Below are positions 22,471-46,578 of a stretch of 50,294 bases of DNA, piece by piece. How positions within the stretch are numbered: position 1 is the first letter of the stretch; each line of letters begins with the position of its first letter. Source of the DNA: a virus. The notes beneath the pieces are model-generated. The model did no database searches. It had not been told where the DNA came from and was given only the letters and a program-made list of their open reading frames with translations. Location: positions 1 through 50,294 of IMG/VR virus record IMGVR_UViG_3300025314_000854; one strand, given 5' to 3'. A program made the position numbers and the translations under genes.

Positions 22471-23247
22471 ATGTGCAATTTCATCAGCTTTATGATCTGC
22501 TCTACACACGAACGCGGCTTGTGGGTGCAGTTAGCTCACTCGCTCAATTCGCATTCCGATTTCAGCCTTGAATGTAAAGCCTATGAGGGGGAATGGACAG
22601 AAAATGACCGCGGCGAAACGCTCCAAATCCGTATTCCTGACGATGAACCCGAAGGCAAACGCGAGGAACTCAAGGCATGGCTGCTCAAACAGTGGCCGAC
22701 CTGGGAACGATTCACAAAATGGGCAATCGCATCGCTTGACTGGAAAGAACATGCCCTCGACCTCAGAAACACCGCCATCACCGCCCTGCCTGAGGGCCTG
22801 AGCGTGGGCGGCAGTCTCTACCTCAACAACACTGCCATCACCGCCCTGCCTGAGGGCCTGAGCGTGGGCGGCTGGCTCGACCTCAACAACACTGCCATCA
22901 CCGCCCTGCCTGAGGGCCTGAGCGTGGGCGGCTGGCTCGACCTCAGAAACACTGCCATCACCGCCCTGCCTGAGGGCCTGAGCGTGGGCGGCAGTCTCTA
23001 CCTCAACAACACTGCCATCACCGCCCTGCCTGAGGGCCTGAGCGTGGGCGGCTGGCTCGACCTCAGAAACACTGCCATCACCGCCCTGCCTGAGGGCCTG
23101 AGCGTGGGCGGCAGTCTCTACCTCAGAAACACTGCCATCACCGCCCTGCCTGAGGGCCTGAGCGTGGGCGGCAGTCTCTACCTCAGAAACACCAAAATTG
23201 ATCCTGAAACAATCCCAGATCATCTGAAAAATAAAGTAATTTTATGA
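22471..23247 (+). CDS. LRR-like repeat protein with seven identical 20-residue modules
   Basis: A 258-residue protein. Residues 1-95 form a unique N-terminal domain (LAHSLNSHSDFSLECKAYEG, EELKAWLLKQWPTWERFTKW). Then seven modules NTAITALPEGLSVGG follow, each joined by SLYL or WLDL and ending NN or RN, and a short cap, TKIDPETIPDHLKNKVIL. The modules form a leucine-rich-repeat-like solenoid, a family seen in phages and bacteria as binding proteins. The near-perfect DNA identity of the 60-bp units implies recent expansion or gene conversion. It is the first gene of the island, with its own strong promoter. Target unknown; an anti-defence or host-binding role is possible but unsupported. Confidence 0.8.
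   Translation: MCNFISFMICSTHERGLWVQLAHSLNSHSDFSLECKAYEGEWTENDRGETLQIRIPDDEPEGKREELKAWLLKQWPTWERFTKWAIASLDWKEHALDLRNTAITALPEGLSVGGSLYLNNTAITALPEGLSVGGWLDLNNTAITALPEGLSVGGWLDLRNTAITALPEGLSVGGSLYLNNTAITALPEGLSVGGWLDLRNTAITALPEGLSVGGSLYLRNTAITALPEGLSVGGSLYLRNTKIDPETIPDHLKNKVIL
22762..23190 (+). repeat. Seven 60-bp in-frame tandem repeats
   Basis: Units of exactly 60 bases run without interruption inside the LRR-like gene. Almost all differences are confined to two small switches: AGTCTCTAC versus TGGCTCGAC (Ser-Leu-Tyr/Trp-Leu-Asp) and AACAAC versus AGAAAC (Asn-Asn/Arg-Asn). Synonymous sites are also identical, so the units are recent copies and not just conserved protein. Confidence 0.9.
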
Positions 23248-23258
23248 GGAGAAAATCC

Positions 23259-25573: not shown

Positions 25574-26143
25574 ATGGACGCCTGTTACAAAAATATACAC
25601 CCTTCGGCTTTTATTCATCTATCCTCAATTATTGACTCAAACGTCAAAATCGGGGAAGCCACCAAAATCTGGCACTTCTGCCACGTTTGCGCCGGGGCGG
25701 TGATAGGCAAAAACTGCATCCTGGGCCAAAACGTGCACATCGGGCCAAATGTCAGCATTGGCGACGGCTGCCGCATTCAGAACAATGTCAGCGTCTATGA
25801 CGGCGTGACGTTGGAAGATTCGGTATTCATTGGCCCTTCCGCCGTCTTTACCAACATCCTCAATCCCCGCGCCAAAGTCAATCAACACGGTAAGTTTCTG
25901 CCTACCCTGGTCAAGCGCGGGGCCACGATCGGGGCCAATGCTACTATCCTGTGCGGATCGACTGTCGGCAGTTACGCAATGGTAGGGGCGGGGTCTGTAG
26001 TCACTCATGACGTGCCTGATTTTGCCCTCGTCTACGGCAATCCAGCGCGGATACAGGGAAGCGTGTGCAAGTGCGGGTGGGTCTGGCGCGACTACTGCCA
26101 TCCCTGCCCAAACTGCGAGCGACTACCACACGAAATCGGATGA
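25574..26143 (+). CDS. wlbB: WlbB/WbpD-like hexapeptide N-acetyltransferase
   Basis: A 189-residue protein with GGGAGG five bases before the ATG, starting directly after the wlbA stop. Left-handed beta-helix hexapeptides run through the protein (IDSNVKIGEATKIWHFCHV, CILGQNVHIGPNVSIGDGC, RIQNNVSVYDGVTLEDSVFIG). VKRGATIGANATILCG and PARIQG are typical of the WlbB/WbpD/PglD-like acetyltransferases that acetylate the 3-amino group of the sugar nucleotide. The Cys-rich end (CKCGWVWRDYCHPCPNC) may bind zinc. Pathway placement comes from its neighbours. Confidence 0.85.
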   Translation: MDACYKNIHPSAFIHLSSIIDSNVKIGEATKIWHFCHVCAGAVIGKNCILGQNVHIGPNVSIGDGCRIQNNVSVYDGVTLEDSVFIGPSAVFTNILNPRAKVNQHGKFLPTLVKRGATIGANATILCGSTVGSYAMVGAGSVVTHDVPDFALVYGNPARIQGSVCKCGWVWRDYCHPCPNCERLPHEIG

Positions 26144-26397
26144 ACCTGAAACGCCTCAACCAGCGCCTTCACGCCAAGCGTCGCGCCAGTGAACGCCTGG
26201 GCCTGACCCTAAACCGCAACGACTTCGCCGAGTTGATAACCATGATACAGGACGGCCAATCCACTCTCGAGCGTAAGATTAGCTTGCGCCAGAGCGTGAG
26301 ACGGCTGGAATGGCGGGGGCGTGAGATCAGATTGATCTTGGTCTATGACTGCAACAGACATCAAATCGTAACATTTTTGACGGAGGACATGAAGTGA
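26140..26397 (+). CDS. Small basic protein, possible DUF4258/RelE-like fold
   Basis: An 85-residue protein whose ATG overlaps the wlbB stop (ATGA). The pattern HAKRRASERLGLTLNRNDFAELITMIQ...LEWRGREIRLILVYDCNRHQIVTFL is shared by many small phage and bacterial proteins with a RelE-like or DUF4258-like look: basic helix, then a small sheet. No toxin catalytic residues can be assigned. It sits inside the sugar operon without an obvious link to it. Confidence 0.6.
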   Translation: MNLKRLNQRLHAKRRASERLGLTLNRNDFAELITMIQDGQSTLERKISLRQSVRRLEWRGREIRLILVYDCNRHQIVTFLTEDMK

Positions 26398-26942
26398 ACT
26401 TTATTCCGGATCAACCCAAGGTATCAGCCCTATCCGTCCCCTACTACGACGATGTAACCGGCGACAAGGGCTGGCAAGGACAAAGCACTACTAAAACAGT
26501 AAAAGTCCTGCAATCTGAAATCATCGGCGCTATCGCACGTCTGGGCGGTAACGTCACTTCGTTCCAGCGCGGCACCTTCCAGACCGGCAATCAAACCCGC
26601 GAGGGCTACCGCCTGCACTATACCATCGAAGCCAGTGACGGCGCTATGATACCGGGGCGCATTGATATCGCGGCCCTGCCCATAAAACAGGACTGGAAAC
26701 TACAGCGAAGCCTCGACACCCGCAAAGACAAGAGCCTGCGCATGTGTTTATACATGCTTAGAATTGCTTTGGACGGAACCTGGTTCTTGCAGCAGCTCAG
26801 CCCCGGCTATGCCCCGCTCATGCCGTGGATGCTGGCTCCGGGGTCTGATAAAACCATCACCGAGTTGTGGCAAGAAAGCTCGGTGATGAGTAATTTACTG
26901 CCGCCAGGCGAAACCGATTTTGTGGAAGGGAGTTATAAATGA
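26394..26942 (+). CDS. Conserved-looking phage protein of unknown function
   Basis: A 182-residue protein starting at a GTG that overlaps the previous stop (GTGA), with CGGAGG upstream. The core TVKVLQSEIIGAIARLGGNVTSFQRGTF...YRLHYTIEASDGAMIPGRIDIAALP is a compact alpha/beta domain. Helical LRMCLYMLRIALDGTWFLQQLSPGYAPLMPWML follows, and the C-terminus is acidic. I recall similar small proteins in metagenomic phages but cannot name the family. It lies between wlbB and wlbC. Confidence 0.6.
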   Translation: MNFIPDQPKVSALSVPYYDDVTGDKGWQGQSTTKTVKVLQSEIIGAIARLGGNVTSFQRGTFQTGNQTREGYRLHYTIEASDGAMIPGRIDIAALPIKQDWKLQRSLDTRKDKSLRMCLYMLRIALDGTWFLQQLSPGYAPLMPWMLAPGSDKTITELWQESSVMSNLLPPGETDFVEGSYK

Positions 26943-28042
26943 TCCCACTCTTTGATCTCAAAGCCCAATACCAAAGCATAAAACCCGAAATTGATGCCGC
27001 CGTATCTCGCGTACTCTCCAGTGGTCGCTACATCGGGGGTGACGAAGTCAAGGCCCTGGAAAACGAAATCTGCGGCTACCTGGGAGTGAGACACGCGGTC
27101 GCCGTAGCAAGCGGTACCGACGCCCTGATCCTGGCCCTGCGCGCCCTCAACATCGGCGCGGGCGATGAAGTCATCGTGCCCGCCTTCTCATTTTGGGCTA
27201 CGGCCAGCGCGGTTCTGCATGTAGGGGCAACACCCGTTTTCGTGGATGTCGAGAAGTCGGATCTCAATATCAGCCCCGCCCGCATCGGCTCAAAAATTAC
27301 TCACCGAACCCGCGCAATCATCGCCGTCTACCTCTACGGCAATCCCGCCAACATGAAAGCAATTCGCGAGATCGCCAAGGGTCATGGCTTATACGTTATC
27401 GAGGACACGGCGCAAGCGTTTGGGGCGACCGTGCCTGATATGGGTTATGCCGGCACGATCGGTAACTGCGGCTGCTTCTCATTCTTCCCCACCAAGCCAC
27501 TGGGCTGCGCGGGGGACGGCGGAATGGTCGTGACAAACATTGACGCGATCGCCGCCAACGTCCGACGCTTGCGCAGTCACGGTTGGACCCAAAAATACAA
27601 TCCCGAAGTCCTGGGCTACAACAGCCGCCTTGACACTATCCAGGCTGCCATACTGAGGGCGAAGCTGCCCCACGTTCTGGACTGGATCAGGCGTCGCAAT
27701 TACTGGGCCGAAATGTACAAGCCCGAATTTTATGCGAACCATATCAACGTCATCGACCAATCCCTGAGCTGGAAAACCAGCGCCCGTCACCTCTTCGTGC
27801 TGGATGTCAAAAACAGGGACGCCGTGCAAGCCCACCTGAAAGAACGGGGCATCGAAACCGGAGTCTATTACCCGCTCCCGCTCAATCGCTGCCAGCCCGT
27901 CAATAACCCCAATTGTGACGATGACTTGCCGGTGGCAGACCGCGCCAGTCGCAACGTTCTGGCTATACCCTGCTACGCCGAGATGACGCCAGAACAAGTG
28001 AATTATGTTGCTGAAAATGTAGTGGAGGCGGTGAACTCATGA
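26939..28042 (+). CDS. wlbC: WlbC/WbpE-like PLP sugar aminotransferase
   Basis: A 367-residue DegT/DnrJ/EryC1/StrS-family aminotransferase. The opening IPLFDLKAQYQSIKPEIDAAV, SGTDALILALRAL, GDEVIVPAFSF and EDTAQ (D156 region) are classic, and FFPTKPLG supplies the PLP lysine (K186). In the Wlb pathway this enzyme aminates the 3-keto sugar made by WlbA. It overlaps the previous gene by ATGA. Together with wlbA and wlbB it forms three consecutive reactions. A UDP-GlcNAc 6-dehydrogenase is not in this window and would have to come from the host. Confidence 0.88.
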   Translation: MIPLFDLKAQYQSIKPEIDAAVSRVLSSGRYIGGDEVKALENEICGYLGVRHAVAVASGTDALILALRALNIGAGDEVIVPAFSFWATASAVLHVGATPVFVDVEKSDLNISPARIGSKITHRTRAIIAVYLYGNPANMKAIREIAKGHGLYVIEDTAQAFGATVPDMGYAGTIGNCGCFSFFPTKPLGCAGDGGMVVTNIDAIAANVRRLRSHGWTQKYNPEVLGYNSRLDTIQAAILRAKLPHVLDWIRRRNYWAEMYKPEFYANHINVIDQSLSWKTSARHLFVLDVKNRDAVQAHLKERGIETGVYYPLPLNRCQPVNNPNCDDDLPVADRASRNVLAIPCYAEMTPEQVNYVAENVVEAVNS

Positions 28043-28488
28043 CCTACACTGGCGGAAACAAATCAGACGGCAAACATTACTGGCTTACTCCTGAAGAACT
28101 CATGGATAAACTACGGGCAGAGTTTACATTCGACTTTGACCCATGCCCATATCCCAAACCGGATGACTTTGACGGTCTAACTGCTGAGTGGGGGCAGTCA
28201 AATTATGTCAATCCCCCGTTCGGCAGTTATATCGCCGAGGACGGGAAAAAGAAAGGCCCTACAGCCTGGGCGCGTAAAGCTATACAGGAATTTAGGAAAG
28301 GCAAGAAAGTGGTATTGGTATATCCAATTGATAAATGGATTCACATGCTTTTAGAGGCGGGCGCACAAGTAAGGAATCTCAAAGATATTCGGTGGTGTTC
28401 TATCGAGGATAGAGAGCAAGGCCCCGGTACAGGCCGTTGGGTCGCCATGTTTATTCTGGATCCGGAAAGCGAGAATAAGAATGTCTAA
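28039..28488 (+). CDS. Phage N6-adenine DNA methyltransferase (Dam-like)
   Basis: A 149-residue short-form phage N6-adenine methyltransferase. YWLTPEELMDKLRAEFTFDFDPCPYP and the catalytic motif IV, NYVNPPFGSY (NPPF, 58-61), are typical; the family lacks a large target-recognition domain. It overlaps wlbC by ATGA. It probably methylates phage DNA at a short site to avoid host restriction. Target sequence cannot be read off. Confidence 0.85.
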   Translation: MTYTGGNKSDGKHYWLTPEELMDKLRAEFTFDFDPCPYPKPDDFDGLTAEWGQSNYVNPPFGSYIAEDGKKKGPTAWARKAIQEFRKGKKVVLVYPIDKWIHMLLEAGAQVRNLKDIRWCSIEDREQGPGTGRWVAMFILDPESENKNV

Positions 28489-28756
28489 AAAACCCGGCAG
28501 AACCCCCCTCGGACTCGTCAATATCCACCTCCAACTCCTGGCCGCTGATCTCGACCACTTGCGCCAGATGCGGGAGCGCAACGGCAAGCCCGTCAACGAA
28601 ATGATCCGCGACCTGGTATCGGGATACGTGGCGTGGATAAAGAGAATCGAGGAGGCCGAGGAACAGATAGCCGCGGACTCGATGAGAAAGGGCATCGAGT
28701 CCGCGGCATCTGAAAATATTGTAGCAGAAATTGAGGGGGAGGTCAACCATGAATAG
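28481..28756 (+). CDS. Ribbon-helix-helix-like small protein
   Basis: A 91-residue protein overlapping the methyltransferase by eight bases. LVNIHLQLLAADLDHLRQMRERNGKPVNEMIRDLVSGYVAWI fits an Arc/MetJ-type RHH unit: one strand, then two helices with the NEMIRDLV turn. An acidic coiled C-terminus follows. It could be a dimeric repressor, and the palindrome at 22415-22428 is a candidate target, but that link is speculative. Confidence 0.6.
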   Translation: MSKKPGRTPLGLVNIHLQLLAADLDHLRQMRERNGKPVNEMIRDLVSGYVAWIKRIEEAEEQIAADSMRKGIESAASENIVAEIEGEVNHE

Positions 28757-28841
28757 AAAATACCCAAACACAGGTTGTCTGATTTCAAAAAAGCCCTCTA
28801 TGATGACCCCTGTAACCAATGTTAGCCTATTTAACAAATGA
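28749..28841 (+). CDS. Possible 30-residue protein
   Basis: A short frame starting MNRKYPNTGCLISKK and ending SLFNK. It overlaps the end of the RHH-like gene by eight bases and the start of the HTH gene by ATGA, so the spacing is just what coupled genes show. The N-terminal YPNTG.L..KK pattern recalls the beginning of small phage proteins of unknown role, perhaps truncated here. Confidence 0.45.
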   Translation: MNRKYPNTGCLISKKPSMMTPVTNVSLFNK

Positions 28842-29173
28842 CGATCTCGCACACGCCCGATTATACCTTGGCTGAATTTAAGGTCATCCTGCGTGATGAA
28901 AAGCGTATTTATACCTACGCAGATTTATCCAAAAAATATGGCGTAAACCGTTTTTATTTATGGCATATTATCAATACACCAAACTATGTGCCACCGCCGA
29001 AAGTACGGATGAAAATAGGAATCCAATACTTTGCACTTGCCCCCGTCTGTGTCCACTGCGGACACGTTCACATATCACGCCGTTGCCCCCTGAAACGCAA
29101 GCCAGCACGGACGCTGCTAGATTATCCCATACAGACGTTACGGGCCATGATTGAGAACAGGGAAGAATACTGA
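28838..29173 (+). CDS. HTH protein with zinc knuckle
   Basis: A 111-residue protein. YADLSKKYGVNRFYLWHIINTPNYVPPPKVRMKIG is a helix-turn-helix of the kind seen in small phage regulators, and CVHCGHVHISRRC adds a CxxC...H...C zinc knuckle. A basic tail follows (RKPARTLLDYPIQTLR). Likely a DNA-binding regulator or accessory protein at the end of the first plus-strand operon. Confidence 0.65.
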   Translation: MTISHTPDYTLAEFKVILRDEKRIYTYADLSKKYGVNRFYLWHIINTPNYVPPPKVRMKIGIQYFALAPVCVHCGHVHISRRCPLKRKPARTLLDYPIQTLRAMIENREEY

Positions 29174-29220
29174 TTCCCCCCCCTCCCCCTCCCTGATTTA
29201 TGTACCCAAAAATAGGGCTA

Positions 29221-29260
29221 CGCACGCAAAATGACCGCACGCAAAATGACCGCACGCAAG
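29221..29260 (+). repeat. 15-bp direct repeat (2.7 copies)
   Basis: CGCACGCAAAATGAC at 29221-29235 and again at 29236-29250, then CGCACGCAAG at 29251-29260. It lies just before the next gene and follows a C-rich stretch (29174-29195). Iteron-like spacing of one and a half DNA turns could serve protein binding; no function can be shown. Confidence 0.75.
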
Positions 29261-29267
29261 GACAATT

Positions 29268-29525
29268 ATGAAAAATAACATCTTCTGGAACACAGTATTT
29301 TTCTTAGACTTGGCTGGACTGCTGGCCTTCGCTATTCTAATCAATGACCGCTGGCCCCGCCTTATTCACCTGTTCTCGGATGGCCTCCTGATCTGCTGCG
29401 GCGTCATTGTGTTTATCTTATCCATCGCCTTCGTCATTACCAATATCCTGTTCAGGCGCGACCATGACCGCCGTGGCAAGTGGATAAACGGCAGTTACTA
29501 CGAAGACTTTTGGTCAGATCAATAA
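29268..29525 (+). CDS. Small two-TM membrane protein
   Basis: An 85-residue protein with two hydrophobic helices (TVFFLDLAGLLAFAILI and LLICCGVIVFILSIAFVITNILF), followed by a charged tail, RRDHDRRGKWINGSYYEDFWSDQ. It overlaps the next gene by one base (TAATG). No family recognised; topology is visible, role unknown. Confidence 0.65.
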   Translation: MKNNIFWNTVFFLDLAGLLAFAILINDRWPRLIHLFSDGLLICCGVIVFILSIAFVITNILFRRDHDRRGKWINGSYYEDFWSDQ

Positions 29526-30154
29526 TGTTAGAAAAACCGCCCTCACTCCTGCCTTCCTTCTGCATTGGCGTCCTTGTCGTGCTGTGCCTGACCGCCATGA
29601 GTTTGAATTTGGGCTGGATCGGGGTCATGGCCTTCTATGGCCTGTGGGTATCCCTGTTTATGCTGGCAGTAGCAAGCGCCGCCTACCTAGCGCGGGCTAT
29701 CTTCTATTCTCGCAGCCTGTCCGATATCAGCCGTCCCGACATCCGCCTCGCCCAGTCTCATGTTGACCTTGCCCGTTATATCTCCCACATGAACGTAGAG
29801 CAGCGCCAACACCACATCCAGATCGTGAATGCGTTGCAGCTCCCACTTACATTTTTACCCGGTCAATCCCTGGTAACAAGCGAAGGCATTGAGATACCTT
29901 ACGAAGCCTTGCTTCGCTACGTGGCGGGGATGAGGGAGATCCAGCGCGAGGGCGGGGAAACACTGTACCGAATGCCGGCGGAAAGGAACGCTTCTGCTGA
30001 AGATAGGGATGCGTTCCGGGCAATCGCCGACGACATCGTTGACAAGTCCTATGCCATAAGCCCTCAGCGTGGCAGTGCACCAGTAATTACCGATAAGGAC
30101 GGGATCATAAAGTACGTGGAAACACTGCTCAATCAGAATCTTGTCAAAGCTTAG
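29525..30154 (+). CDS. Membrane-anchored protein of unknown function
   Basis: A 209-residue protein starting at ATG 29525, which shares its first base with the previous stop. Two TM helices near residues 8-60 (FCIGVLVVLCLTAMSLNLGWIGVMAFYGLWVSLFMLAVASAAYLA) anchor a soluble C-terminal part. That part contains helical segments (IRLAQSHVDLARYISHMNVEQRQHHIQIV, YEALLRYVAGMREIQREG) and a charged end. No known domain recognised. Confidence 0.65.
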   Translation: MLEKPPSLLPSFCIGVLVVLCLTAMSLNLGWIGVMAFYGLWVSLFMLAVASAAYLARAIFYSRSLSDISRPDIRLAQSHVDLARYISHMNVEQRQHHIQIVNALQLPLTFLPGQSLVTSEGIEIPYEALLRYVAGMREIQREGGETLYRMPAERNASAEDRDAFRAIADDIVDKSYAISPQRGSAPVITDKDGIIKYVETLLNQNLVKA

Positions 30155-30162
30155 GAGAAAAT

Positions 30163-30378
30163 ATGGAAACTCACAACATCACCGCTTTACTAGACCAACT
30201 CAGCGCCGCCATTGGCGATCAAGCGCGTCCAGTCATTGCCTATTACGAAGCCTTGACCGAGGCCAAGCTGCCGGAAGACCTTATCAGTGATCTTATTTTA
30301 CAGTTCGCCGATATGTGGTGGCGGAAGGCATTCGGGATATCCCACGAAAAGCCGTGGTTTGATGCCCGAATTGAATAA
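30163..30378 (+). CDS. Small soluble protein, unknown
   Basis: A 71-residue, helical, acidic protein (ITALLDQLSAAIGDQARPVIAYYEALTEAKLPEDLISDLILQFADMWWRKAFG) with AGGAG upstream of its start. The LPEDLISDLILQF...WWRK part resembles short helical modules in phage proteins with no named role. Placed in the membrane-protein run of the island. Confidence 0.6.
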   Translation: METHNITALLDQLSAAIGDQARPVIAYYEALTEAKLPEDLISDLILQFADMWWRKAFGISHEKPWFDARIE

Positions 30379-30395
30379 AGAAATCAATGCTTACG

Positions 30396-30409
30396 GATAA
30401 TTAATTATC
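30396..30409. promoter_or_regulatory. 14-bp perfect palindrome
   Basis: GATAATTAATTATC is a perfect palindrome in the 53-base gap between two small genes. Being AT-rich it may bind a regulator; it could also be chance. Confidence 0.4.
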
Positions 30410-30431
30410 AAAAACATGAAAGGAAAATAAC

Positions 30432-30887
30432 ATGCCCACCCGAAAACCCGGCCAACACCCCACGCTTCCCCCTCCCTTCACTCATCTATTGTGGGACAAG
30501 CCAACCCGCAGCGACCACATATTCAACATCGTCTATATCTTCATCCTGCTCGTGTTCGTGGCGGTCTTCGCCGCACTGCTGTTCAGCCGCGCCAGCGCCC
30601 AGGCCAACCTATGCGGGGGCAAATCCGATGCCCGCTATGTCTCACCCTGGACAATCATACAGCCCCATACATCCTACATCTTCAAACACGGTTTCAAATG
30701 CGCCCCGCTCGAGTTGAACGCCTGGGCAGTGGTAGCTTTCAAGAACAGTGAAGGTGTGCCAGTAGTAGCCGTGCCGTACCTGGAGCTGCATGGCGCTCTG
30801 GCGGTTACTGCGGTAGACGATTACTCCATCGTTCTACAGAACAATTCCGAAACCATGATATGGGCGAGGGTTGTAGCCAGACCGTGA
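30432..30887 (+). CDS. Single-TM protein with extracytoplasmic domain
   Basis: A 151-residue protein with AAAGGA before the start. A proline-rich cytoplasmic N-terminus (1-30) leads to one TM helix (IFNIVYIFILLVFVAVFAALLF), then a ~95-residue beta-rich exported part with two cysteines (ANLCGG and FKCAPLELNAWAVVAF) that could form a disulfide. No family recognised. A role at the host envelope is likely from topology. Confidence 0.65.
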   Translation: MPTRKPGQHPTLPPPFTHLLWDKPTRSDHIFNIVYIFILLVFVAVFAALLFSRASAQANLCGGKSDARYVSPWTIIQPHTSYIFKHGFKCAPLELNAWAVVAFKNSEGVPVVAVPYLELHGALAVTAVDDYSIVLQNNSETMIWARVVARP

Positions 30888-30894
30888 GGATGCG

Positions 30895-31098
30895 ATGAAA
30901 AACCTGAAATATATGATTGGCGTCGGCATTGTCTGCGCCATTTCAGGGACAGCAATTGCCTTGATAATCCTGTTAATTGCCCACCAACCGTTGGAATATG
31001 TCTGGATTGGGGCATTGATAGGGTTTGTCGCGGGCGTTCTCCTTGAATCATTGGCGCAAATGGCGGCCTGGGCCGACACCGAAATGCCGAAACATTAG
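30895..31098 (+). CDS. Small two-TM membrane protein
   Basis: A 67-residue protein with two hydrophobic segments (MIGVGIVCAISGTAIALIILLI and YVWIGALIGFVAGVLLESLAQMAAW) and a short polar end. It starts seven bases after the previous gene. Holin-like in size and topology, but there is no endolysin next to it. Confidence 0.65.
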   Translation: MKNLKYMIGVGIVCAISGTAIALIILLIAHQPLEYVWIGALIGFVAGVLLESLAQMAAWADTEMPKH

Positions 31099-31111
31099 GA
31101 GTTAAGTACTA

Positions 31112-31140
31112 TAGACTCTGCTTACCGTTTCTGCTACAAT
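31112..31140 (+). promoter_or_regulatory. Promoter for the structured RNA/second island operon
   Basis: TAGACT (31112-31117), 17 bases, TACAAT (31135-31140). The start would fall at 31146-31147, exactly the first bases of the GGGGTTGG arm of the outer hairpin of the predicted RNA. Confidence 0.55.
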
Positions 31141-31145
31141 AAATT

Positions 31146-31404
31146 GGGGTTGGTACTCGGGAAACCGTGGAATCGCCGGTGTGCGCCGGTCCCCAGCCCC
31201 TATTGGTAATGCCGGGCGGGTGTCCTCTGCCCCGCGTCCTGACATGCGCGGTCGGATCTCCTACGCCCGCCCGGCGCTTATAAAAATAAATAGCTCCGCC
31301 TAACACCGACGATAACGGCGAGTATGCGAGGACTGGCATCAAAGCGCAAGGGCAACCGCTGCCAGCTTCCGGGATACGGCCACGAAACTTCGGATGAATG
31401 GAGC
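31146..31404 (+). ncRNA. Candidate structured noncoding RNA or long structured leader
   Basis: No gene fits the 391-base gap 31099-31489. The sequence folds by eye into several strong stems. Stem 1 is GGGGTTGG (31146-31153) with CCAGCCCC (31193-31200), enclosing CGG-GAAA-CCG (31158-31167, a GNRA loop) and a small CCGG hairpin. Stem 2 is a perfect 10-bp GCCGGGCGGG (31211-31220) with CCCGCCCGGC (31266-31275), enclosing CCGCG/CGCGG (31232-31236 with 31247-31251). Stem 3 is GCTCC (31293-31297) with GGAGC (31400-31404), closing a branched domain that holds CTGGCA/TGCCAG (31333-31338 with 31360-31365), inner GCG/CGC and a CGCC/GGCG helix. Both halves are followed by CTTATAAAA. I do not recognise a known RNA family. 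It is either a free RNA or a leader of the gene at 31490. Confidence 0.6.
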
Positions 31405-31489
31405 ACTTATAAAACAGAAAAAAAACTCATAAGACCAGGCAGGTGAGTTGCCCCGCCTCCTGGCAGAAACTCTCCAGAAAGGAAATCGA

Positions 31490-31633
31490 ATGCGACAACA
31501 ATTAACATTCTTTGAAATTGTGCTGCTGCTCATACTTGGAATAGGCGCGGTTATCGTGGCGGGGGCAGTGTTGGGGATCGACGTGGTGCATGGGGTCAGG
31601 GGTTGGATTGAAACGGTTGGAAATCAGTTATGA
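31490..31633 (+). CDS. 47-residue single-TM protein
   Basis: Best started at ATG 31490, with AAAGGAA about six bases upstream; upstream in-frame residues lie over the structured region. One TM helix (EIVLLLILGIGAVIVAGAVLGI) and a short tail (DVVHGVRGWIETVGNQL). Its end overlaps the following methyltransferase by four bases. A 29-base hairpin (CCAG/CTGG, AGG/CCT, 31435-31462) lies just before its ribosome-binding site. Function unknown. Confidence 0.6.
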   Translation: MRQQLTFFEIVLLLILGIGAVIVAGAVLGIDVVHGVRGWIETVGNQL

Positions 31634-32841
31634 TTAGCTTGATTTGCGGTGATTCCCTGCATATCCCACTGGCTGACGAAACGGTGCAATGCGTAGTGAC
31701 CAGCCCACCCTACTGGAATTTGCGGGACTATGGAATAGACGGCCAACTTGGCAATGAACCCACACCAGAAGAATATACAGCGAACCTGGTGACGGTATTT
31801 CGAGAAGTGTGGAGAGTTCTTCGGCCAGATGGTGTGTTATTCCTGAATTTAGGAGACAGTTACGCTGGAAGTGGAGGAGTAGGCAATCAACGGGACGATG
31901 CCAATAAAGGCAATATGCCCCATTTCAAAAGCCAAAGCAGTGCTATTGTTACCAGAAAATCATTAAGACCCGATAAAGCAGATGTATGCACCGAAGGCAC
32001 CCACTCCGTATTGGGATTGAAACCCAAAGACCTGATCGGCGTCCCCTGGCGCGTGGCCTTCGCACTACAGGCCGATGGCTGGTACTTGCGGAGTGACATC
32101 ATCTGGCATAAGCCCAACCCCATGCCTGAGAGTGTGCGGGACAGGCCGACGAAGTCGCACGAGTACCTGTTCCTGCTGAGTAAGAGCCAGCGGTACTATT
32201 ATGACCAAGAGGCGGTTAGGGAACCATATATTAATCCCGACATAAACGCCACAGATAGCGCCATTTGTGGTTTTAGAGAAACACCTCCAGAAGAAGGGCA
32301 ACATAGCGCCCTGGGAAAGCCGCGCAAGACGTTTTATCAGAACATTGGTCGCAACCGCCGCACCGTCTGGACTATTCCCACATCGCCCTACAGCGGCGCA
32401 CACTTCGCCACATTCCCTCCCGCCCTGGTTGAACCGTGCATACTGGCCGGCACATCAGAGCGCGGATGCTGCCCGACTTGCGGCAAGCCGTGGGAGAGGG
32501 TGGTGGAGAAGGGCTATCGCGCTCCAGCTCAGGAAGATGTAATAGCAGAGATGATAGCGAAGGGCGTGCCTCGCCAGAAGGCAAACTTATACGGCAACCC
32601 TTCCAGAGATCCAAAGTTATATGCTGCTAACCCAGATAGGTTTCTCGGCTGGCGCGCCGCCTGTGACTGCCCTCCTGCCGATCCTGTTCCATGCACAGTC
32701 CTTGACCCATTCGCCGGCACCTTCACGGTTGGGATGGTCGCCGCCAAGCATCGCAGGAACGCGGTCGGTATAGAGTTGAAACCAGAATATATCGAACTGG
32801 CGCGAAAGCGTTGCAGTGATATACAAATACAATTTATATAA
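31630..32841 (+). CDS. Beta-class DNA methyltransferase (N4-cytosine or N6-adenine)
   Basis: A 403-residue protein. The N-terminus ISLICGDSLHIPLADETVQCVVTSPPYWNLRDYG carries motif IV as TSPPYW (24-29), the form common in N4-cytosine enzymes. TVLDPFAGTFTVGMVAAKHRRNAVGIELKPEYIELA near the C-terminus is the AdoMet motif I, so the order is beta-class. A CPTCGKPW...CDC pair may bind zinc in the target-recognition region. No cognate endonuclease lies nearby, which suggests a solitary methyltransferase protecting or marking phage DNA. Confidence 0.88.
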   Translation: MISLICGDSLHIPLADETVQCVVTSPPYWNLRDYGIDGQLGNEPTPEEYTANLVTVFREVWRVLRPDGVLFLNLGDSYAGSGGVGNQRDDANKGNMPHFKSQSSAIVTRKSLRPDKADVCTEGTHSVLGLKPKDLIGVPWRVAFALQADGWYLRSDIIWHKPNPMPESVRDRPTKSHEYLFLLSKSQRYYYDQEAVREPYINPDINATDSAICGFRETPPEEGQHSALGKPRKTFYQNIGRNRRTVWTIPTSPYSGAHFATFPPALVEPCILAGTSERGCCPTCGKPWERVVEKGYRAPAQEDVIAEMIAKGVPRQKANLYGNPSRDPKLYAANPDRFLGWRAACDCPPADPVPCTVLDPFAGTFTVGMVAAKHRRNAVGIELKPEYIELARKRCSDIQIQFI

Positions 32842-32857
32842 GAGAGGAAATGAAACT

Positions 32858-33340
32858 ATGAGAGAATCAACTTTCGACACCTGGGCTTTGATTGAACTTT
32901 TCGGCCACTCCCGCATTGCGGGCCTTGTCACCGAGCAAGCCCTAGGTGGATCCGCGCTCATTCGCGTGGACGTTCCAGCCCTCCCGGCCCGCGGCGACAT
33001 CCAGGCCCAACCCGCATTCACAAGATATTTTGGGATTGCGGCAATTTATAGCTTGACCCCCGTGAGTGAAGACCTGGCAACAGCCGCCGCTGACAGTATG
33101 CGAGTGCACCCGGTCGAAATTTATATGGCGACTCCTCAACTACGGGCGGGGCTGGAATGGGATGACGATACCGATAACAATCCCGATAACAATCTCTTAT
33201 CTTTTGGCCCATTTGACGCTGCCATCGAGTGGGACGAAGAAGCCCACCCAAATCTATCACGGCGAAGTCATCAACATCAAAGACGTTATTACTTTCCAGG
33301 GCGCAACAAGAGCCGAAACACTCCAGGCCATGAAAGATAG
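32858..33340 (+). CDS. Small conserved-looking protein, C-terminus probably altered
   Basis: A 160-residue frame starting at ATG 32858. The first ~110 residues (FDTWALIELFGHSRIAGLVTEQALGGSALIRVDVPALPARG...YFGIAAIYSLTPVSEDLAT) resemble a small protein common in phage and bacterial metagenomes. From about residue 115 the frame runs into the N-terminal strand of a HicB-like domain (FDAAIEWDEEAH) and then ends in a low-complexity basic tail (SRRSHQHQRRYYFPGRNK) that looks out of frame. The original gene probably ended earlier, and a frameshift joined the two. Confidence 0.6.
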   Translation: MRESTFDTWALIELFGHSRIAGLVTEQALGGSALIRVDVPALPARGDIQAQPAFTRYFGIAAIYSLTPVSEDLATAAADSMRVHPVEIYMATPQLRAGLEWDDDTDNNPDNNLLSFGPFDAAIEWDEEAHPNLSRRSHQHQRRYYFPGRNKSRNTPGHER

Positions 33341-33419
33341 CGTTTATGATTATCTGGATTTTGTCAGTGGAAAGAAAGCGCATCCAGAGGCAGAGGACAA
33401 ATACAAGGATGTAATTTAG
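33202..33419 (+). pseudogene. Frameshifted HicB-like antitoxin
   Basis: The HicB pattern is split over two frames. FDAAIEWDEEAH is read up to 33247 in the frame of the upstream gene. IYHGEVINIKDVITFQGATRAETLQAMKDSVYDYLDFVSGKK continues from 33252 in the +1 frame to the stop at 33419. An extra base in the CCCAAA run at 33247-33252 would explain it. HicB antitoxins normally pair with HicA mRNA interferases; no HicA is visible. Either a decayed antitoxin-like gene or a sequencing error. Confidence 0.6.
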
Positions 33420-33497
33420 CAAACCCTCAACCACTTCTCCTACTCTAGCCACATTCCCCAAAAAACGATATATAGATAAACTGAAAGGAACAATAAA

Positions 33498-33821
33498 ATG
33501 TTAGCACAGGATATAACCAAAATCGTACAGGCAATGGCCGAGTCAATATCAGATATAAAAAGGCAAGGCAAGGTATTCTTAAGCAGAGAAAACAATTCGT
33601 TATGCATATCGATCAATAGTAACTACGAGATCACCTTTAATAAAGATGATAAATCTTGGAAAATGAATATAGAAGATGGTCTTGGACGAGTAGTAAGATC
33701 CTATGAGATACTCTCTGATAGTCCAGAACATGAACAATTGAATATCATTCTCGATCGACTGGAAGCAAAATCAGGAAATGCTACTTTGGTTTTGAAGTAT
33801 TTGAATGAAAGCGAGAACTAA
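33498..33821 (+). CDS. Unknown 107-residue protein
   Basis: The last plus-strand gene of the island, with GAAAGGAA upstream of the ATG. It is notably AT-rich relative to neighbours. The sequence (ITKIVQAMAESISDIKRQGKVFLSRENNSLCISINSNYEITFNKDDKSWKMNIEDG) suggests a helix followed by a small beta sheet and a C-terminal helix. No family recognised. The base composition hints at a separate acquisition. Confidence 0.55.
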   Translation: MLAQDITKIVQAMAESISDIKRQGKVFLSRENNSLCISINSNYEITFNKDDKSWKMNIEDGLGRVVRSYEILSDSPEHEQLNIILDRLEAKSGNATLVLKYLNESEN

Positions 33822-36639: not shown

Positions 36640-37462
36640 TGCTGACTTCCTTCCGCTCCCGCGGGTCTGTCAAAAAATCGGCTTGAGTAAGTTTAGGCTT
36701 TTCGTCAATGGCGAAGAGGGGCGGCTGTAGCTGCGCCTGGGCGATGCGCTTCTCCGCAATGGCGAAGTAGTCCGCGTTCATTTCGCATCCCCAAAACTCC
36801 TGCCCCGTCTGAATTGCGGCTATTCCAGTTGTACCACTGCCCATCACAAAATCACACACGAGATCGCCGGGGTTGCTGTAGGTGCGAATAAGATACTCAT
36901 AGAGGGAAATGGGCTTTTGGGTTGGGTGATAACCTACCTCAGGGCGAGTTCTGTCACCATTACTTACCGTTATTATAGTGGTCGGATAATATTCATTGTT
37001 GAATGACTTGCGCGGGCCATAGGGATGATACACATCCTTGTCACCTCCACTCCCTCCGCCCTTCAACCGTGGTTCACCCCTGGTAATCATTTGCGGGTTG
37101 TAGGTAGTGTAACCTGCAGGCGAAAATATCACTATATTTTCGTGAACACGCATCAATCGGCGGTTAGCATCAAGAAAACCAACGGGCAATACTTTATTCC
37201 AAGCCGCCTCTTGTCTAAACCACTCCAAATTACTCATCACCAATGCGCCGGTAAACGGCTGGCTTGCGGTGGTTATGAATGCGCCGCGCGGTTTCAGTAT
37301 GCGCTTGACCGCCGCCCACATCGGCACAAATGGGATCACCACATCCCAGCTACATGCGGTAATACCATAAGGCAAATCTGTCGCTATCAAGTCCACCGAC
37401 TGCGCGGGCAACGTTGGCAGCCAAGCTAGGCAGTCCCCGCAATGCAAAGTAACCTCAGGCAT
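36605..37462 (-). CDS. Beta-class DNA methyltransferase
   Basis: A 285-residue enzyme. VTLHCGDCLAWLPTLPAQSVDLIATDLPYG carries motif IV as DLPY (29-32), a variant of DPPY. HPTQKPISLYEYLIRTYSNPGDLVCDFVMGSGTTGIAAIQTGQEFWGCEMNADYF contains the AdoMet motif I. The order is beta-class N6-adenine (or N4-cytosine). It overlaps both neighbours. The target is unknown; no partner endonuclease is seen. Confidence 0.88.
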   Translation of the reverse strand: MPEVTLHCGDCLAWLPTLPAQSVDLIATDLPYGITACSWDVVIPFVPMWAAVKRILKPRGAFITTASQPFTGALVMSNLEWFRQEAAWNKVLPVGFLDANRRLMRVHENIVIFSPAGYTTYNPQMITRGEPRLKGGGSGGDKDVYHPYGPRKSFNNEYYPTTIITVSNGDRTRPEVGYHPTQKPISLYEYLIRTYSNPGDLVCDFVMGSGTTGIAAIQTGQEFWGCEMNADYFAIAEKRIAQAQLQPPLFAIDEKPKLTQADFLTDPRERKEVSNDGLALERNRA

Positions 37463-38069
37463 GTACCGCCTCCCTCGCCTTCGCCACGATTTCCCGAGGC
37501 CCGATATCGAACACGGCGTAGGGGCTGTAAACGTTGGGCCGTCTCAGGTATAGGGTGCAATCCATTAGATACCATTTCACGATCAAGCCGTGGCCGTCCT
37601 TCCCTATTTCCTCAGGCTTGCGCTTCGTTTTTCTATCCGTTTTCAGGATGGTAAACAGCGCTTTGTCCTGGTTCGTGCCAACATGAAAAGGGAAGCCGTC
37701 GGGAATAGTTTTGACATAAATTGAGTGCAGCTCAAAGCCCGAAGCGTCCCAGGTGAAGGGCTGCCACCCCGCCCACTTGGGCTTGACGCTGCCCACTGAG
37801 CCTACATACAACCAGCCTCCGGGCTTGAGCAAGCGCCAGGCCAGCGCTGACCACGATTCCACATCATCAATGCCGAAGTCCCGCATCAATGCCAGATCAT
37901 ATTCGTGATAACTGGCGGGATTGACTTCAAATAATTCAAAGGCAGTAAGGTCAACACCGGGGGGAGCACCAACCAGCTCCGCGCCCGTTCTAAGCAAGTC
38001 AGCGGCCTTCTTGCCCTTGAAGTCATAACGGAATCGGTGCTCGATTTCGAGGAAGGGATCAATGTTCAT
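37455..38069 (-). CDS. Methyltransferase-fold-like protein, unknown
   Basis: Started at ATG 38069 (about 204 residues), since the frame above it lies over the zinc-finger gene. LLRTGAELVGAPPGVDLTAFELFEVNPASYHEYDLALMRDFGIDDVESWSALAWRLLKPGGWLYVGSVGS looks like a class I Rossmann methyltransferase, with ALAWRLLKPGGWLYVGS as strand/helix five. I see no clear AdoMet glycine loop, so activity is uncertain. It sits in a run of methyltransferases. Confidence 0.55.
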   Translation of the reverse strand: MNIDPFLEIEHRFRYDFKGKKAADLLRTGAELVGAPPGVDLTAFELFEVNPASYHEYDLALMRDFGIDDVESWSALAWRLLKPGGWLYVGSVGSVKPKWAGWQPFTWDASGFELHSIYVKTIPDGFPFHVGTNQDKALFTILKTDRKTKRKPEEIGKDGHGLIVKWYLMDCTLYLRRPNVYSPYAVFDIGPREIVAKAREAVHA

Positions 38070-38295
38070 AGCTATCCCCACACTTGCAGTCATCACCGCA
38101 GCACGGCTCAACGCCGGTGCCGTGACAGCGCGGGCACTCCACAGGCTCGACCAGACCCAACGTTACTGCTATATTGGAGGGCGGCGTCAATTCCGCCCAT
38201 GCTTTCCAGGTATCGCCGCTCACACTGTCTACCCTTTTCCAACCCTCGCATTTGGTACATTTGTCTTCGTCATCGTAAATTGTAACGATGTCCAT
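38059..38295 (-). CDS. DnaJ-type zinc-finger-like small protein
   Basis: A 78-residue protein. CTKCEGWKRVDS and CPRCHGTGVEPCCGDDCKCG provide CxxCxG repeats like half of a DnaJ zinc finger. Its ATG shares a base with the upstream stop (TAATG) and its end overlaps the next gene by 11 bases, so it belongs to the coupled operon. Likely a zinc-binding adaptor; role unknown. Confidence 0.7.
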   Translation of the reverse strand: MDIVTIYDDEDKCTKCEGWKRVDSVSGDTWKAWAELTPPSNIAVTLGLVEPVECPRCHGTGVEPCCGDDCKCGDSYEH

Positions 38296-38798
38296 TATTT
38301 TGTCCTTTCCCTGAATACGACATTGATCGGGCCGGTATAGCCGCGGCGGAAATGCAAAGCTGCAACAGAGAAGCCAATCGGAAAGCCAAGGCTGCTCCCT
38401 GTTCCATACTCAACTAAATCTTGTATACCACCCCAGGCATAGATAATCTTTAACATAGCATGACTATTAAATGTTTTACTGGTTGGCGCTAAATATAAGG
38501 CGTGATCGCATATCTCGAAACTATGATAAAGCCATAAATCGAATAGACTAAACGGCGGGTTTCCCACAATCCAATCATAATGCTCATGACAGGCAAAGAA
38601 GTCCCGTCCCTTCGTAATCTCGCACCAATCCGCACCCGGCAGGTACTTGAGAAACGCACCATCACCCGCGCAAGGCTCCAGGATGCGGCCCGATGGTTTG
38701 AAATACTCCACCATGTCGCGGGCTACCCAATCTGGTGTGTATACGACATCTGATGGATTTAACGGAATCTGCAATAACTGGGGTTGTGTGCTATGCAT
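38295..38798 (-). CDS. N6-adenine methyltransferase-like protein
   Basis: A 167-residue protein. VVYTPDWVARDMVEYFKPSGRILEPCAGDGAFLKYLP gives the AdoMet motif (EPCAGDG, 41-47), and DWIVGNPPFSLFDLWLYHSFEI gives catalytic NPPF (80-83). Motif I before motif IV with no separate recognition domain makes it a compact, gamma-like type. It may be active on its own or need a partner for DNA recognition. Overlaps the HNH gene by eight bases. Confidence 0.82.
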   Translation of the reverse strand: MHSTQPQLLQIPLNPSDVVYTPDWVARDMVEYFKPSGRILEPCAGDGAFLKYLPGADWCEITKGRDFFACHEHYDWIVGNPPFSLFDLWLYHSFEICDHALYLAPTSKTFNSHAMLKIIYAWGGIQDLVEYGTGSSLGFPIGFSVAALHFRRGYTGPINVVFRERTK

Positions 38799-39240
38799 TA
38801 TTCAACCTGGCGTACTCTCCAAATAATTTACAGGCTTCGCAATCGTATGCCTGAGCGGCTTCCTTGGACGTTGTAAATCTTCCTATGTGTTTCTTGTTTC
38901 CATTGATGTTTATATAGGCCTCCCATTTTTTGCGGGCCTTGTCAAAACTCACGCCTTTATATCCACTTGTGTTATCACTCTTTATAATGGCATTCTGCAT
39001 GTTTTGAGCGTGAGTACAAAAGCGTAAATTTCCACGCCGGTTATCAAGTCGATTCCTATTAATATGATCTATCTCGTCATCCTGGCCCGCGCCCATAATT
39101 AATCGATGCATTAATATTTTACCGCTATCCATCGCCGCATAACCAGTTTTCATAAATTGCCACTTATGCCTATTTATCAATTCGTAATCCTCGTCGTCTA
39201 TAATAGCAAACCGACCTTGCGTTAACATTATTTTTTTCAT
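38791..39240 (-). CDS. HNH-AP2 homing endonuclease
   Basis: A 149-residue protein. IIDDEDYELINRHKWQF and the HNH core, MHRLIMGAGQDDEIDHINRNRLDNRRGNLRFC (H45, D58-H59, N-rich end), are followed by an AP2 DNA-binding domain (SGYKGVSFDKARKKWEAYININGNKKHIGRFTTSKEAAQAYD, ~92-148). This is the standard architecture of free-standing phage homing endonucleases. It is inserted between portal and head genes. GAGGT lies five bases before the ATG. An unusual set of interleaved dyads precedes it. Confidence 0.92.
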   Translation of the reverse strand: MKKIMLTQGRFAIIDDEDYELINRHKWQFMKTGYAAMDSGKILMHRLIMGAGQDDEIDHINRNRLDNRRGNLRFCTHAQNMQNAIIKSDNTSGYKGVSFDKARKKWEAYININGNKKHIGRFTTSKEAAQAYDCEACKLFGEYARLNNA

Positions 39241-39250
39241 TTTGACCTCA

Positions 39251-39341
39251 AATAAATAGCCGCCTTCTACAGATTGATATCTTGCTGAGGGATACCAGTA
39301 GAGAGCGGCTATTTATTATCAATCATAGGTATGCCCTCAGC
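39251..39341 (-). other. Three interleaved inverted repeats upstream of the HNH gene
   Basis: On the plus strand three blocks are each followed, in the same order, by their reverse complements. Block P (39251-39263) pairs with 39305-39317, 13 perfect bp, extended inside by TCTAC/GTAGA (39266-39270 with 39298-39302). Block Q (39272-39279) pairs with 39317-39324, 8 bp. Block R (39284-39296) pairs with 39328-39341, 13 bp with one bulged base. The order P-Q-R-P'-Q'-R' cannot nest, so the RNA would be a pseudoknot or would switch between folds. The predicted start of the minus-strand transcript falls at 39341, the first base of R' in RNA order. No known element recognised. Confidence 0.75.
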
Positions 39342-39347
39342 GTGGTC

Positions 39348-39364
39348 ATTATATCACAATCACC
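39348..39364 (-). promoter_or_regulatory. Extended -10 promoter for the HNH region, shared motif copy 1
   Basis: On the minus strand the sequence GGTGATTGTGATATAAT ends in TATAAT (39353-39348) preceded by TGA, an extended -10 element. No good -35 box lies at the usual distance. The same 17-base block, with one difference, precedes the packaging genes at 43929-43945. Confidence 0.6.
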
Positions 39365-39405
39365 TTGGGCAAGCGGTATCTGTAGCAGTTGCGGTTGGGT
39401 TGCGT

Positions 39406-41052
39406 TCAAATCGTTTCCCCTTCTGTAATCGGCTCATTGTCCAGAAGCTGCCCGAACTCAGCCCCCGTCCTCTTTATGCCCTGGTTGATAGCTTGCGTGA
39501 CCATATCAGCCGTGATCTTGACCTCGCCCTTCTCATACAATACCGCCGACTCGTCCTGTCTCCGTATGCGCGCGGCGGGTTGGTACACACGCTTTATCAG
39601 GCTCGAACCCGAACTCCACAACACCTGTACCCGATCTTTAGGCCATTGGTAACGAACTAAAGCGTCATCGGGGAAAGCGCGAACAGCGCGCCAGATGTGG
39701 GGCTGGGCCAGCAGCATGTCACGCCTGATACGTAGCTGCCGCGCCTCCGTCACCGCTTCCTCATCCGTACCGGCTTCGTCTTCATCGCTGGAAGTAGAGG
39801 GGATTTCAGTATCCACCCACTCCGGCGCAATCATGCCCTTCTCGGCGTAGAGCTGGCGCGTTTCCTGGTCGGTAATGGCCCCGCCTACGCCCAACTGCAT
39901 ACCGGTTTCACGCATGGTCTTGAACACATTCGCCCACGCCTGCATCACATTGGCGGCTTCGATCTCGGCAGCTTCGTCGCGCTCGTCGTATTCGAAGTGC
40001 AGGGCTTCCGGCAACACGTCAGGGCGTTGTAACTGTTCCTGGACAGCCAGAATGAAATTACGCCCGCCCTTGCCCGTTGCTTTTTCGTGCTGAACTTCCA
40101 TCTCTGTCCCACGCCCCAACGACCCGAACTGAACGGGGTAGAACTCGCTGGGGTCATATCCGGCGATCAATGCCAGGCCATACATGAACATAGCGATAAA
40201 GTCCCGCAAATTGAAATTGGCGGGGAGCTGGGACAGCGCGATCAACTTGGCATCCACGTTTGGGCCGTTGCCGCACAGAACTTGAATGGCGTCATAGTAC
40301 CTGACATTCGCGCCCTCACGGTCGGCTTTTCTGCCGACCATCGCATCCCGCCACTGTTTCTCGCTGATACCCAGGATAAGCAGGATACCGCGCGGAGCCG
40401 CCGCGCCCAACGCTTCCAGGTCGTGCTGCCACACCGCAATCATGAGACGGATTAAGATTTCGGCACGGCTCAAGAAACACCAGCCCGCGCCCCTGTACTC
40501 CTCGCGAATCTCGGGCATGGATGCGACTCTAATCATGTCCATTTCGCGGTAGGGTATAATCTTGTGACTGCGCCCCACTTTAGGCACGTAGGAGATCGGG
40601 AATTCTTCCTTGCTGGTCAAGTAACAACGCGTGGGGTCGAGGTGGAAGAACTGGCGCGTTGGGCCTGACTTGCCGTCCCTGCCTATCTCGGCAATGCCGC
40701 CGAAGTCCGAGGTATGATAAGCGGTGGACAGCGCCGCCGTGCCCGGTCGCCAGCCCTTGAGGCCCCAGGCCACCGTCCAGTCGTGCAAGACCCCGGTATA
40801 TCTCAACACTTGGTTGCGCCCGCCCGTCAGTGTCCAGCCCCGGTTGGCGTCGATGCTGACCATCGAATGTATAACGCCTTGCAGGTGCGGCTCCTTGCGC
40901 CAGAACTCGGCCAGCCAGGTATCACGGTATCGCGTGTCGGGCCTGTATGGGGGCGCGTCTTCAAGGTCTTGCGCCCACGACAGCAAATCGACCATAATGC
41001 CGTCAACTTCTTTTTCAGTAAATCGGGGTTGTTTCGAGGTTGTCTTTGCCAT
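39406..41052 (-). CDS. Portal protein
   Basis: A 548-residue protein started at ATG 41052, which has GGGAG six bases upstream; a TTG 21 bases earlier is a weaker alternative. It follows the terminase genes and shows portal features: LAEFWRKEPHLQGVIHSMVSIDANRGWTLTG, WRPGTAALSTAYHTSDFGGIAEIGRDG, YFHLDPTRCYLTSKEEFPISYV-like clip/wing strands, LIALSQLPANFNLRDFIAMFMYGLALIAGYDPSEFYPVQFGSLGRGTEME and a long C-terminal helical crown. The dodecameric ring through which DNA enters and leaves the head. Confidence 0.88.
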   Translation of the reverse strand: MAKTTSKQPRFTEKEVDGIMVDLLSWAQDLEDAPPYRPDTRYRDTWLAEFWRKEPHLQGVIHSMVSIDANRGWTLTGGRNQVLRYTGVLHDWTVAWGLKGWRPGTAALSTAYHTSDFGGIAEIGRDGKSGPTRQFFHLDPTRCYLTSKEEFPISYVPKVGRSHKIIPYREMDMIRVASMPEIREEYRGAGWCFLSRAEILIRLMIAVWQHDLEALGAAAPRGILLILGISEKQWRDAMVGRKADREGANVRYYDAIQVLCGNGPNVDAKLIALSQLPANFNLRDFIAMFMYGLALIAGYDPSEFYPVQFGSLGRGTEMEVQHEKATGKGGRNFILAVQEQLQRPDVLPEALHFEYDERDEAAEIEAANVMQAWANVFKTMRETGMQLGVGGAITDQETRQLYAEKGMIAPEWVDTEIPSTSSDEDEAGTDEEAVTEARQLRIRRDMLLAQPHIWRAVRAFPDDALVRYQWPKDRVQVLWSSGSSLIKRVYQPAARIRRQDESAVLYEKGEVKITADMVTQAINQGIKRTGAEFGQLLDNEPITEGETI

Positions 41053-41073
41053 TGCTAACTCCCGCTCCCGCAA

Positions 41074-41628: not shown

Positions 41629-41640
41629 GTGTCCTCCATT

Positions 41641-43687: not shown

Positions 43688-43907
43688 CGTTTTCCGGTAA
43701 TTCGATCACCGTCACTAAAAGCCGCTTCTGTGTGAACAAAGCCAGTTTCAGGCCATCGGGGCTAATTCGGATCGGGATATCGAGCTGTACCCTTAAATTG
43801 TCGCCGTCGCCGCTGATTTTGAGCGCGGACTGAATTGGTGGCAAGCTGGCATAGAATTGGATTTGGGCAATGGCTTTCCCTTTCTCCGCTTTGGCCTTCT
43901 GGCTCAT
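43614..43907 (-). CDS. Small protein upstream of terminase, unknown
   Basis: A 97-residue protein with GAGG seven bases before ATG and a strong extended -10 promoter 20 bases upstream. It overlaps the small terminase gene by 74 bases in another frame. Lysine-rich N-terminus, a beta-rich middle (LRVQLDIPIRISPDGLKLALFTQKRLLVTVIELP) and a basic end. No family recognised. It is the first gene of the packaging operon. Confidence 0.6.
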   Translation of the reverse strand: MSQKAKAEKGKAIAQIQFYASLPPIQSALKISGDGDNLRVQLDIPIRISPDGLKLALFTQKRLLVTVIELPENDERPIPRKRITKYPTYAKASETKA

Positions 43908-43928
43908 ATTGACGCCTCTCTATATGAA

Positions 43929-46566: not shown

Positions 46567-46578
46567 AGCAATTCCTGA

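What the first reader, a model, noticed from the sequence alone, without database searches (positions are those of the whole stretch)
31112..31489. Structured RNA candidate with its own promoter in a coding-poor gap
A 391-base gap among otherwise packed genes holds at least three separate strong stems (8, 10 and 5-plus-6 bp), a GAAA tetraloop, nested GC-rich helices and a repeated CTTATAAAA end after each half. A TAGACT-17-TACAAT promoter places the RNA start exactly on the 5' arm of the outer stem. I do not recognise a known class. Phages carry several large structured RNAs of unknown use, so a new class, or a structured leader controlling the following methyltransferase operon, is possible. 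Promoter and stems are seen; RNA function is inferred.
Basis: partly seen in the sequence, partly recalled or inferred. Interest (0 to 1): 0.8.

Follow-up and report, generated by a model that had tools for sequence, protein, structure and literature searches.

The report
Phage operon's long structured RNA leader
A gap between two genes of an environmental phage holds one of the phage's own promoters and, right behind it, an unusually stable RNA fold, so it is most likely a long folded lead-in to a gene for a DNA-modifying enzyme; no relative of it was found anywhere, so a new RNA class can be neither shown nor excluded.

Summary
The 391-nt gap (31099-31489) is non-coding and holds a credible phage promoter (31112-31140): a matrix trained on four other promoters of this phage ranks it 4th of 100,530 sites, and 9 of 5000 shuffled gaps match it. 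The predicted start lies within about 1-2 nt of stem A. One hairpin (B, 31210-31276, 14-bp closing stem) is a real outlier: no shuffle of 200 folds as well, and no other of about 4020 77-nt windows is more stable. The rest is weaker: the whole gap (z -1.0 to -1.6), half C and the GAAA hairpin (3 bp) are not clearly better than shuffles, and C refolds once coding sequence is included.

Rfam, cultured phages, plasmids, viral-contig scans, sister phages and about 1,300 genomes gave no homologue, so covariation cannot be tested. There is no intrinsic terminator on the + strand, and the ribosome-binding site is of this phage's usual type. Best reading: a ~343-nt structured 5' leader of a small membrane protein plus DNA methyltransferase operon, probably acting in cis on mRNA stability or early elongation. 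Two other promoter-like sites of the phage also lead straight into GC-rich hairpins. The 'new class' reading is possible but unsupported.

The parts
31112..31140 (+). Promoter TAGACT-17-TACAAT with extended -10 (TGC); predicted start about 31147
   Evidence: 9/12 matches; rank 4 of 100,530 with a matrix from four other promoters of this phage; 9/5000 shuffled gaps as good
31146..31200 (+). Domain A: 8-bp outer stem 31146-31153/31193-31200, inner hairpin 31175-31180/31185-31190, GAAA loop 31161-31164 on 3 bp
   Evidence: z -1.28 on its own, so not significant alone
31210..31276 (+). Hairpin B: 14-bp closing stem 31210-31223/31263-31276, with inner helices
   Evidence: z -4.17, 0/200; lowest energy of about 4020 windows; third best stem of the window
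31277..31292 (+). AU-rich unpaired linker after B, starts CTTATAAAA (repeat 1); possible RNase cleavage site (inferred)
31293..31404 (+). Half C: weak long-range fold; forms only when downstream coding sequence is left out
   Evidence: z -1.54; pair probability falls from 0.93-0.97 to 0 in longer folds
31406..31434 (+). AU-rich linker after C, starts CTTATAAAA (repeat 2), with A8 run
31435..31463 (+). Hairpin D, 10 bp, before the ribosome-binding site; also lost in longer folds
   Evidence: z -2.47, 5/200
31476..31486 (+). Ribosome-binding site AGAAAGGAAAT, of the type found close behind other promoters of this phage
   Evidence: 3 exact in the window against 0.02 expected
31490..31633 (+). 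First gene behind the leader: 47-aa putative membrane protein
   Evidence: sequence; no family
31630..32841 (+). DNA methyltransferase gene (N6_N4_Mtase)
   Evidence: PF01555 E 2.3e-42; phrog_67 E 5.2e-68

Best explanation
The gap is the 5' leader (about 343 nt, 31147-31489) of an mRNA made from the phage's own promoter at 31112-31140 and encoding a small membrane protein, a DNA methyltransferase and following genes. Supported by computation: non-coding, promoter of the phage's own type, an exceptionally stable hairpin (B) within the first 130 nt, no intrinsic terminator on the + strand, phage-type ribosome-binding site before the next gene. Inferred: that the promoter is used; that the 5' end lies at the foot of stem A; that the A-B domain works in cis by closing off the 5' end, so that 5'-end-dependent decay is slowed (and possibly the polymerase leaving the promoter is influenced); that the AU-rich linkers after B and C are cleavage sites. 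C and D are probably loosely folded spacer.
For: Non-coding gap. Promoter rank 4 of 100,530, 9/5000 shuffled gaps. B z -4.17 and lowest energy of about 4020 windows. A outer stem 0.94-0.99 paired in leader folds to 31560. No + strand terminator in the gap. Ribosome-binding site AGAAAGGAAAT as behind promoters 22420 and two in G001. Other promoter-like sites 44043(-) and 28746(-) also lead into hairpins reached by only 0.37% and 0.30% of random windows, with no shared sequence, which suits a generic 5'-end role. 5' UTR stem-loops that stabilise mRNAs are documented (PMC7509114).
Against: No transcript data. No homologue, so no sign that the fold is under selection. Whole leader folds no better than shuffles. 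In the fold to 31633 stem A drops to 0.04. -35 box is poor (TAGACT). The hairpin recurrence was noticed after the fact and 28746(-) lies inside an ORF.
Confidence: 0.5

Rival explanations
1. An ordinary promoter region: the promoter is real, but the rest of the gap is spacer (for example a cassette junction), and hairpin B is a chance or DNA-level palindrome without RNA function.
For: Only B stands out; other windows of this phage have equal or lower z, 15 of about 4020 at or below B; whole gap z -1.0 to -1.6; genes around lie in a cassette on the strand opposite to the structural genes; nothing conserved.
Against: B is the most stable 77-nt window and lies right behind the promoter; a 391-nt non-coding stretch is rare in this packed genome.
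Confidence: 0.26
2. An independent small RNA: A-B (about 130 nt) is made from the promoter, cut off in the AU-rich linker after B and acts in trans or as a stable RNA; the methyltransferase operon is merely downstream.
For: A+B is compact (z -2.94, 1/200) and is followed by an unpaired AU-rich stretch.
Against: No terminator behind B or C on the + strand; no homologue; no known family.
Confidence: 0.14
3. A put-like element: A and B bind the transcribing polymerase and suppress termination or pausing downstream, as in phage HK022.
For: Two stem-loop domains directly behind a phage promoter, the arrangement of HK022 putL (PMC9378689).
Against: No sequence or model match to HK022 (best 3.7 bits); the element is about twice as long; hairpins behind the other promoters share no sequence with it; the + strand terminator scan found none inside the operon, only one at 33901 beyond its last gene.
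Confidence: 0.05
4. A riboswitch or translational switch: C and D exchange with a pairing between the leader and early coding sequence and so control the start codon.
For: C and D are replaced by that pairing in longer folds; start codon accessibility falls to 0.19.
Against: The pairing is at shuffled level (30-50 of 300); ribosome-binding site about 0.6 unpaired in every fold; no Rfam riboswitch; no terminator pair.
Confidence: 0.05

Closest known systems
Stabilising 5' UTR stem-loops of bacterial mRNAs (review PMC7509114)
   Same: Stable stem-loop at or near the predicted 5' end of an mRNA, upstream of an independent ribosome-binding site
   Different: Leader is long (about 343 nt) with a much larger hairpin; no stability data; 5' end only predicted
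HK022 put RNA (PMC9378689)
   Same: Two stem-loop domains directly behind a phage promoter
   Different: put is about 70 nt and its copies share sequence; no similarity to HK022 found; function untested
GOLLD and ROOL phage RNAs (PMC12286853)
   Same: Structured non-coding RNA in a phage genome
   Different: Many GOLLD members exceed 800 nt and both classes often lie near tRNA islands; here no tRNA, no Rfam match, and compact folding only over about 130 nt

Membership tests
Any Rfam 15 family (including GOLLD, ROOL, riboswitches, ribozymes) | Covariance-model score at or above the gathering score | tested here: not met
   Whole window: 0 matches; gap alone with lax filters: best 16.1 bits against a cut-off of 60
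Stabilising 5' UTR stem-loop | Stable stem within a few nt of the mRNA 5' end | tested here: inconclusive
   Predicted start 31147, stem A from 31146; start not mapped
Stabilising 5' UTR stem-loop | Prolongs mRNA half-life | not testable with these tools
   Needs experiment
HK022 put RNA | Two stem-loops directly behind a phage promoter | tested here: met
   A and B, 31146-31276, promoter 31112-31140
HK022 put RNA | Sequence similarity to put | tested here: not met
   HK022 26000-33000: model R1 best 3.7 bits; blastn only short AT- or GC-rich words
HK022 put RNA | Suppresses downstream termination | not testable with these tools
   Needs in vitro transcription
New structured RNA class | Homologues with compensatory base changes | tested here: inconclusive
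   No homologue found, so covariation could not be counted
Transcription attenuator / terminating riboswitch | Intrinsic terminator in the leader | tested here: not met
   None on the + strand of the gap

The most novel reading that the evidence does not exclude
The first ~130 nt (A-B) belongs to an undescribed phage RNA type: a promoter-proximal hairpin module that this phage places behind several of its promoters (31112, 28746, 44043) and that modifies the transcribing polymerase or protects phage mRNAs, without sequence conservation between copies.
Probability: 0.1. Interest if true: 0.6.

Novelty: new member of a known kind. Interest (0 to 1): 0.27.

Why it matters
If confirmed it would show that this phage controls a DNA methyltransferase operon through a long folded leader, and that stable 5' hairpins are a recurrent part of its transcripts. 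As it stands it is an orphan leader of an environmental phage and changes no general picture.

Tried and rejected
Known RNA class: rejected. Hidden or decayed gene: codon statistics at non-coding level in all six frames, no family match. Homologues through neighbours: 30432-30884 and a four-protein concatenate gave none in viral contigs; methyltransferase relatives and terminase sisters lack the gap. DNA patterns in viral contigs: only chance word matches. Models R1/R2, built from the single sequence, on about 2 Mb (R1) and 1 Mb (R2): best hit 22 bits, E 0.12, chance. About 1,300 genomes: isolated 29-44 nt hits at E about 7e-4, which that many genomes give by chance. Switch between C/D and a leader-coding pairing: not beyond shuffles. 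Strand asymmetry of folding: 14% of windows show as much. put RNA: no similarity. The exact 14-mer shared with 28717-28730 was first taken as chance (many other 14-mer repeats exist); both copies later ranked 3rd and 4th in the promoter scan, so it may be real promoter sequence. Four genome searches failed on handle syntax.

Full report
What the window is. It is a linear virus record of 50,294 bases from an environmental phage (tape measure, terminase). A second contig, G001 (27,466 bases), is identical over window 37077-50294 and over several hundred bases at the window's start, and holds more than 13 kb between these ends; the genome is therefore about 64 kb (inference). G001 does not cover the gap. 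The terminase is about 42% identical to that of phage BPP-1; its nearest relatives in IMG/VR (76-59%, G001 apart) share almost no other proteins with the window.

The gap. Between the + strand gene ending at 31098 and the one starting at 31490 there are 391 nt without coding signal (windows of true genes have a median score of 0.17, gap windows at most about 0.02 in any frame before the next gene begins). It is the largest internal gap; the next is 225 nt.

The promoter. A generic consensus scan gives TAGACT-17-TACAAT with TG before the -10, 9 of 12 matches; nine such sites in 6.1 kb against 6.8 in shuffles is not impressive. The phage's own promoters are more telling. Four sites (22420+ and 44043- in the window, two in G001) read TTGACA-17-TACAAT or TATACT; three of them are followed closely by the ribosome-binding site AGAAAGGAAAT. 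A matrix made from these four, without the gap site, ranks the gap site 4th of 100,530 positions, two of the better ones being training sites. Shuffled windows hold 1.4 sites this good on average, and 9 of 5000 shuffled gaps hold one. The promoter is therefore credible, not proven.

The fold. Hairpin B (31210-31276) has z -4.17 with 0/200 shuffles as stable, is the most stable of about 4020 77-nt windows and in the top 0.4% by z. A+B (31141-31281) has z -2.94, 1/200, or z -1.95, 9/200, for 31147-31279. A alone, C alone and the entire leader are within reach of shuffled sequence. The outer stem of A is at 0.94-0.99 in folds ending between 31420 and 31560 but lost in the fold to 31633; B stays at 0.78 or more. 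C and D form only in folds that stop before most of the coding sequence. A stronger fold on the + than on the - strand is not unusual in this genome.

What follows. No intrinsic terminator lies on the + strand of the gap. The next gene has AGAAAGGAAAT at 31476-31486, a motif expected 0.02 times in the window and present three times. Elsewhere it stands close behind the promoter; here about 335 nt lie between. The simplest reading is a long leader of the operon 31490-33821 (47-aa membrane protein, DNA methyltransferase, further genes).

Recurrence. When the first 75 nt behind each promoter-like site were folded, 44043(-) and 28746(-) also led into hairpins of -33.8 and -35.5 kcal/mol, values reached by 0.37% and 0.30% of random windows. 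The three hairpins share no sequence. This comparison was made after the fact, and 28746(-) lies inside the 3' end of an ORF. If real, it favours a generic role such as protection of the mRNA 5' end over recognition by one specific factor.

Homologues. None was found: Rfam, cultured phages, plasmids, sister phages, viral contigs by pattern and by neighbouring proteins, covariance models over about 2 Mb and about 1,300 genomes. Single-sequence models and exact word scans have low sensitivity, the genomes were chosen from groups holding distant terminase relatives only, and the metagenome collection could not be scanned. No covariation test was possible.

Mechanism and standing. Most likely a cis-acting structured 5' leader; a stabilising effect of 5' UTR stem-loops is established for other bacterial mRNAs (PMC7509114). 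The architecture resembles HK022 put RNA (PMC9378689), but direct comparison with HK022 gave no similarity. The claim of a new RNA class is not supported by present evidence and not excluded either.

Noticed in passing
28665-28746, - strand: Promoter-like TTGACC-17-TACAAT (rank 3 of 100,530) whose -10 region is identical over 14 nt to that of the gap (TTTCTGCTACAATA); the predicted start (about 28711) falls on a 19-pair hairpin, z -6.7, antisense to the 3' end of an RHH-like ORF (28481-28756). Possible antisense RNA.
   Followed up: partly
43929-44043, - strand: Strong promoter TTGACA-17-TACAAT followed by a 13-bp GC-rich hairpin (43955-43986; z -2.7, 0/200), then a second TATAAT with TGTGA before it, upstream of the packaging genes.
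   Followed up: partly
39241-39405, - strand: Intergenic hairpin of 14 bp plus inner helix (AATAAATAGCCGC...GCGGCTATTTATT) just before gene 38791-39240; the strongest z of all 77-nt windows (-7.4); 165-nt fold z -3.45. The 13-mer ATTGTGATATAAT upstream of it recurs at 43929-43941.
   Followed up: partly
window ends 1 and 50294; G001 (L222): Contig G001 is identical to both ends of the window and bridges them with more than 13 kb of further phage sequence, so the window record is an incomplete genome of about 64 kb.
   Followed up: partly
47915-50164, - strand: DnaB-like helicase interrupted by an intein with a LAGLIDADG domain.
   Followed up: no
22696-23252: Seven copies of a 60-nt-spaced repeat inside gene 22471-23247, with a weak leucine-rich-repeat match.
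   Followed up: no
14921-16018, - strand: Protein with an Lcl_C domain in a phage whose terminase resembles that of BPP-1; from memory such domains occur in targets of diversity-generating retroelements. No reverse transcriptase was recognised among the proteins annotated here, and no template repeat was seen.
   Followed up: partly
46-360: Non-coding stretch with a diverged 72-nt direct repeat, a 25-nt tandem repeat and a perfect 14-bp hairpin, continuing into G001. Possible replication or packaging site.
   Followed up: no
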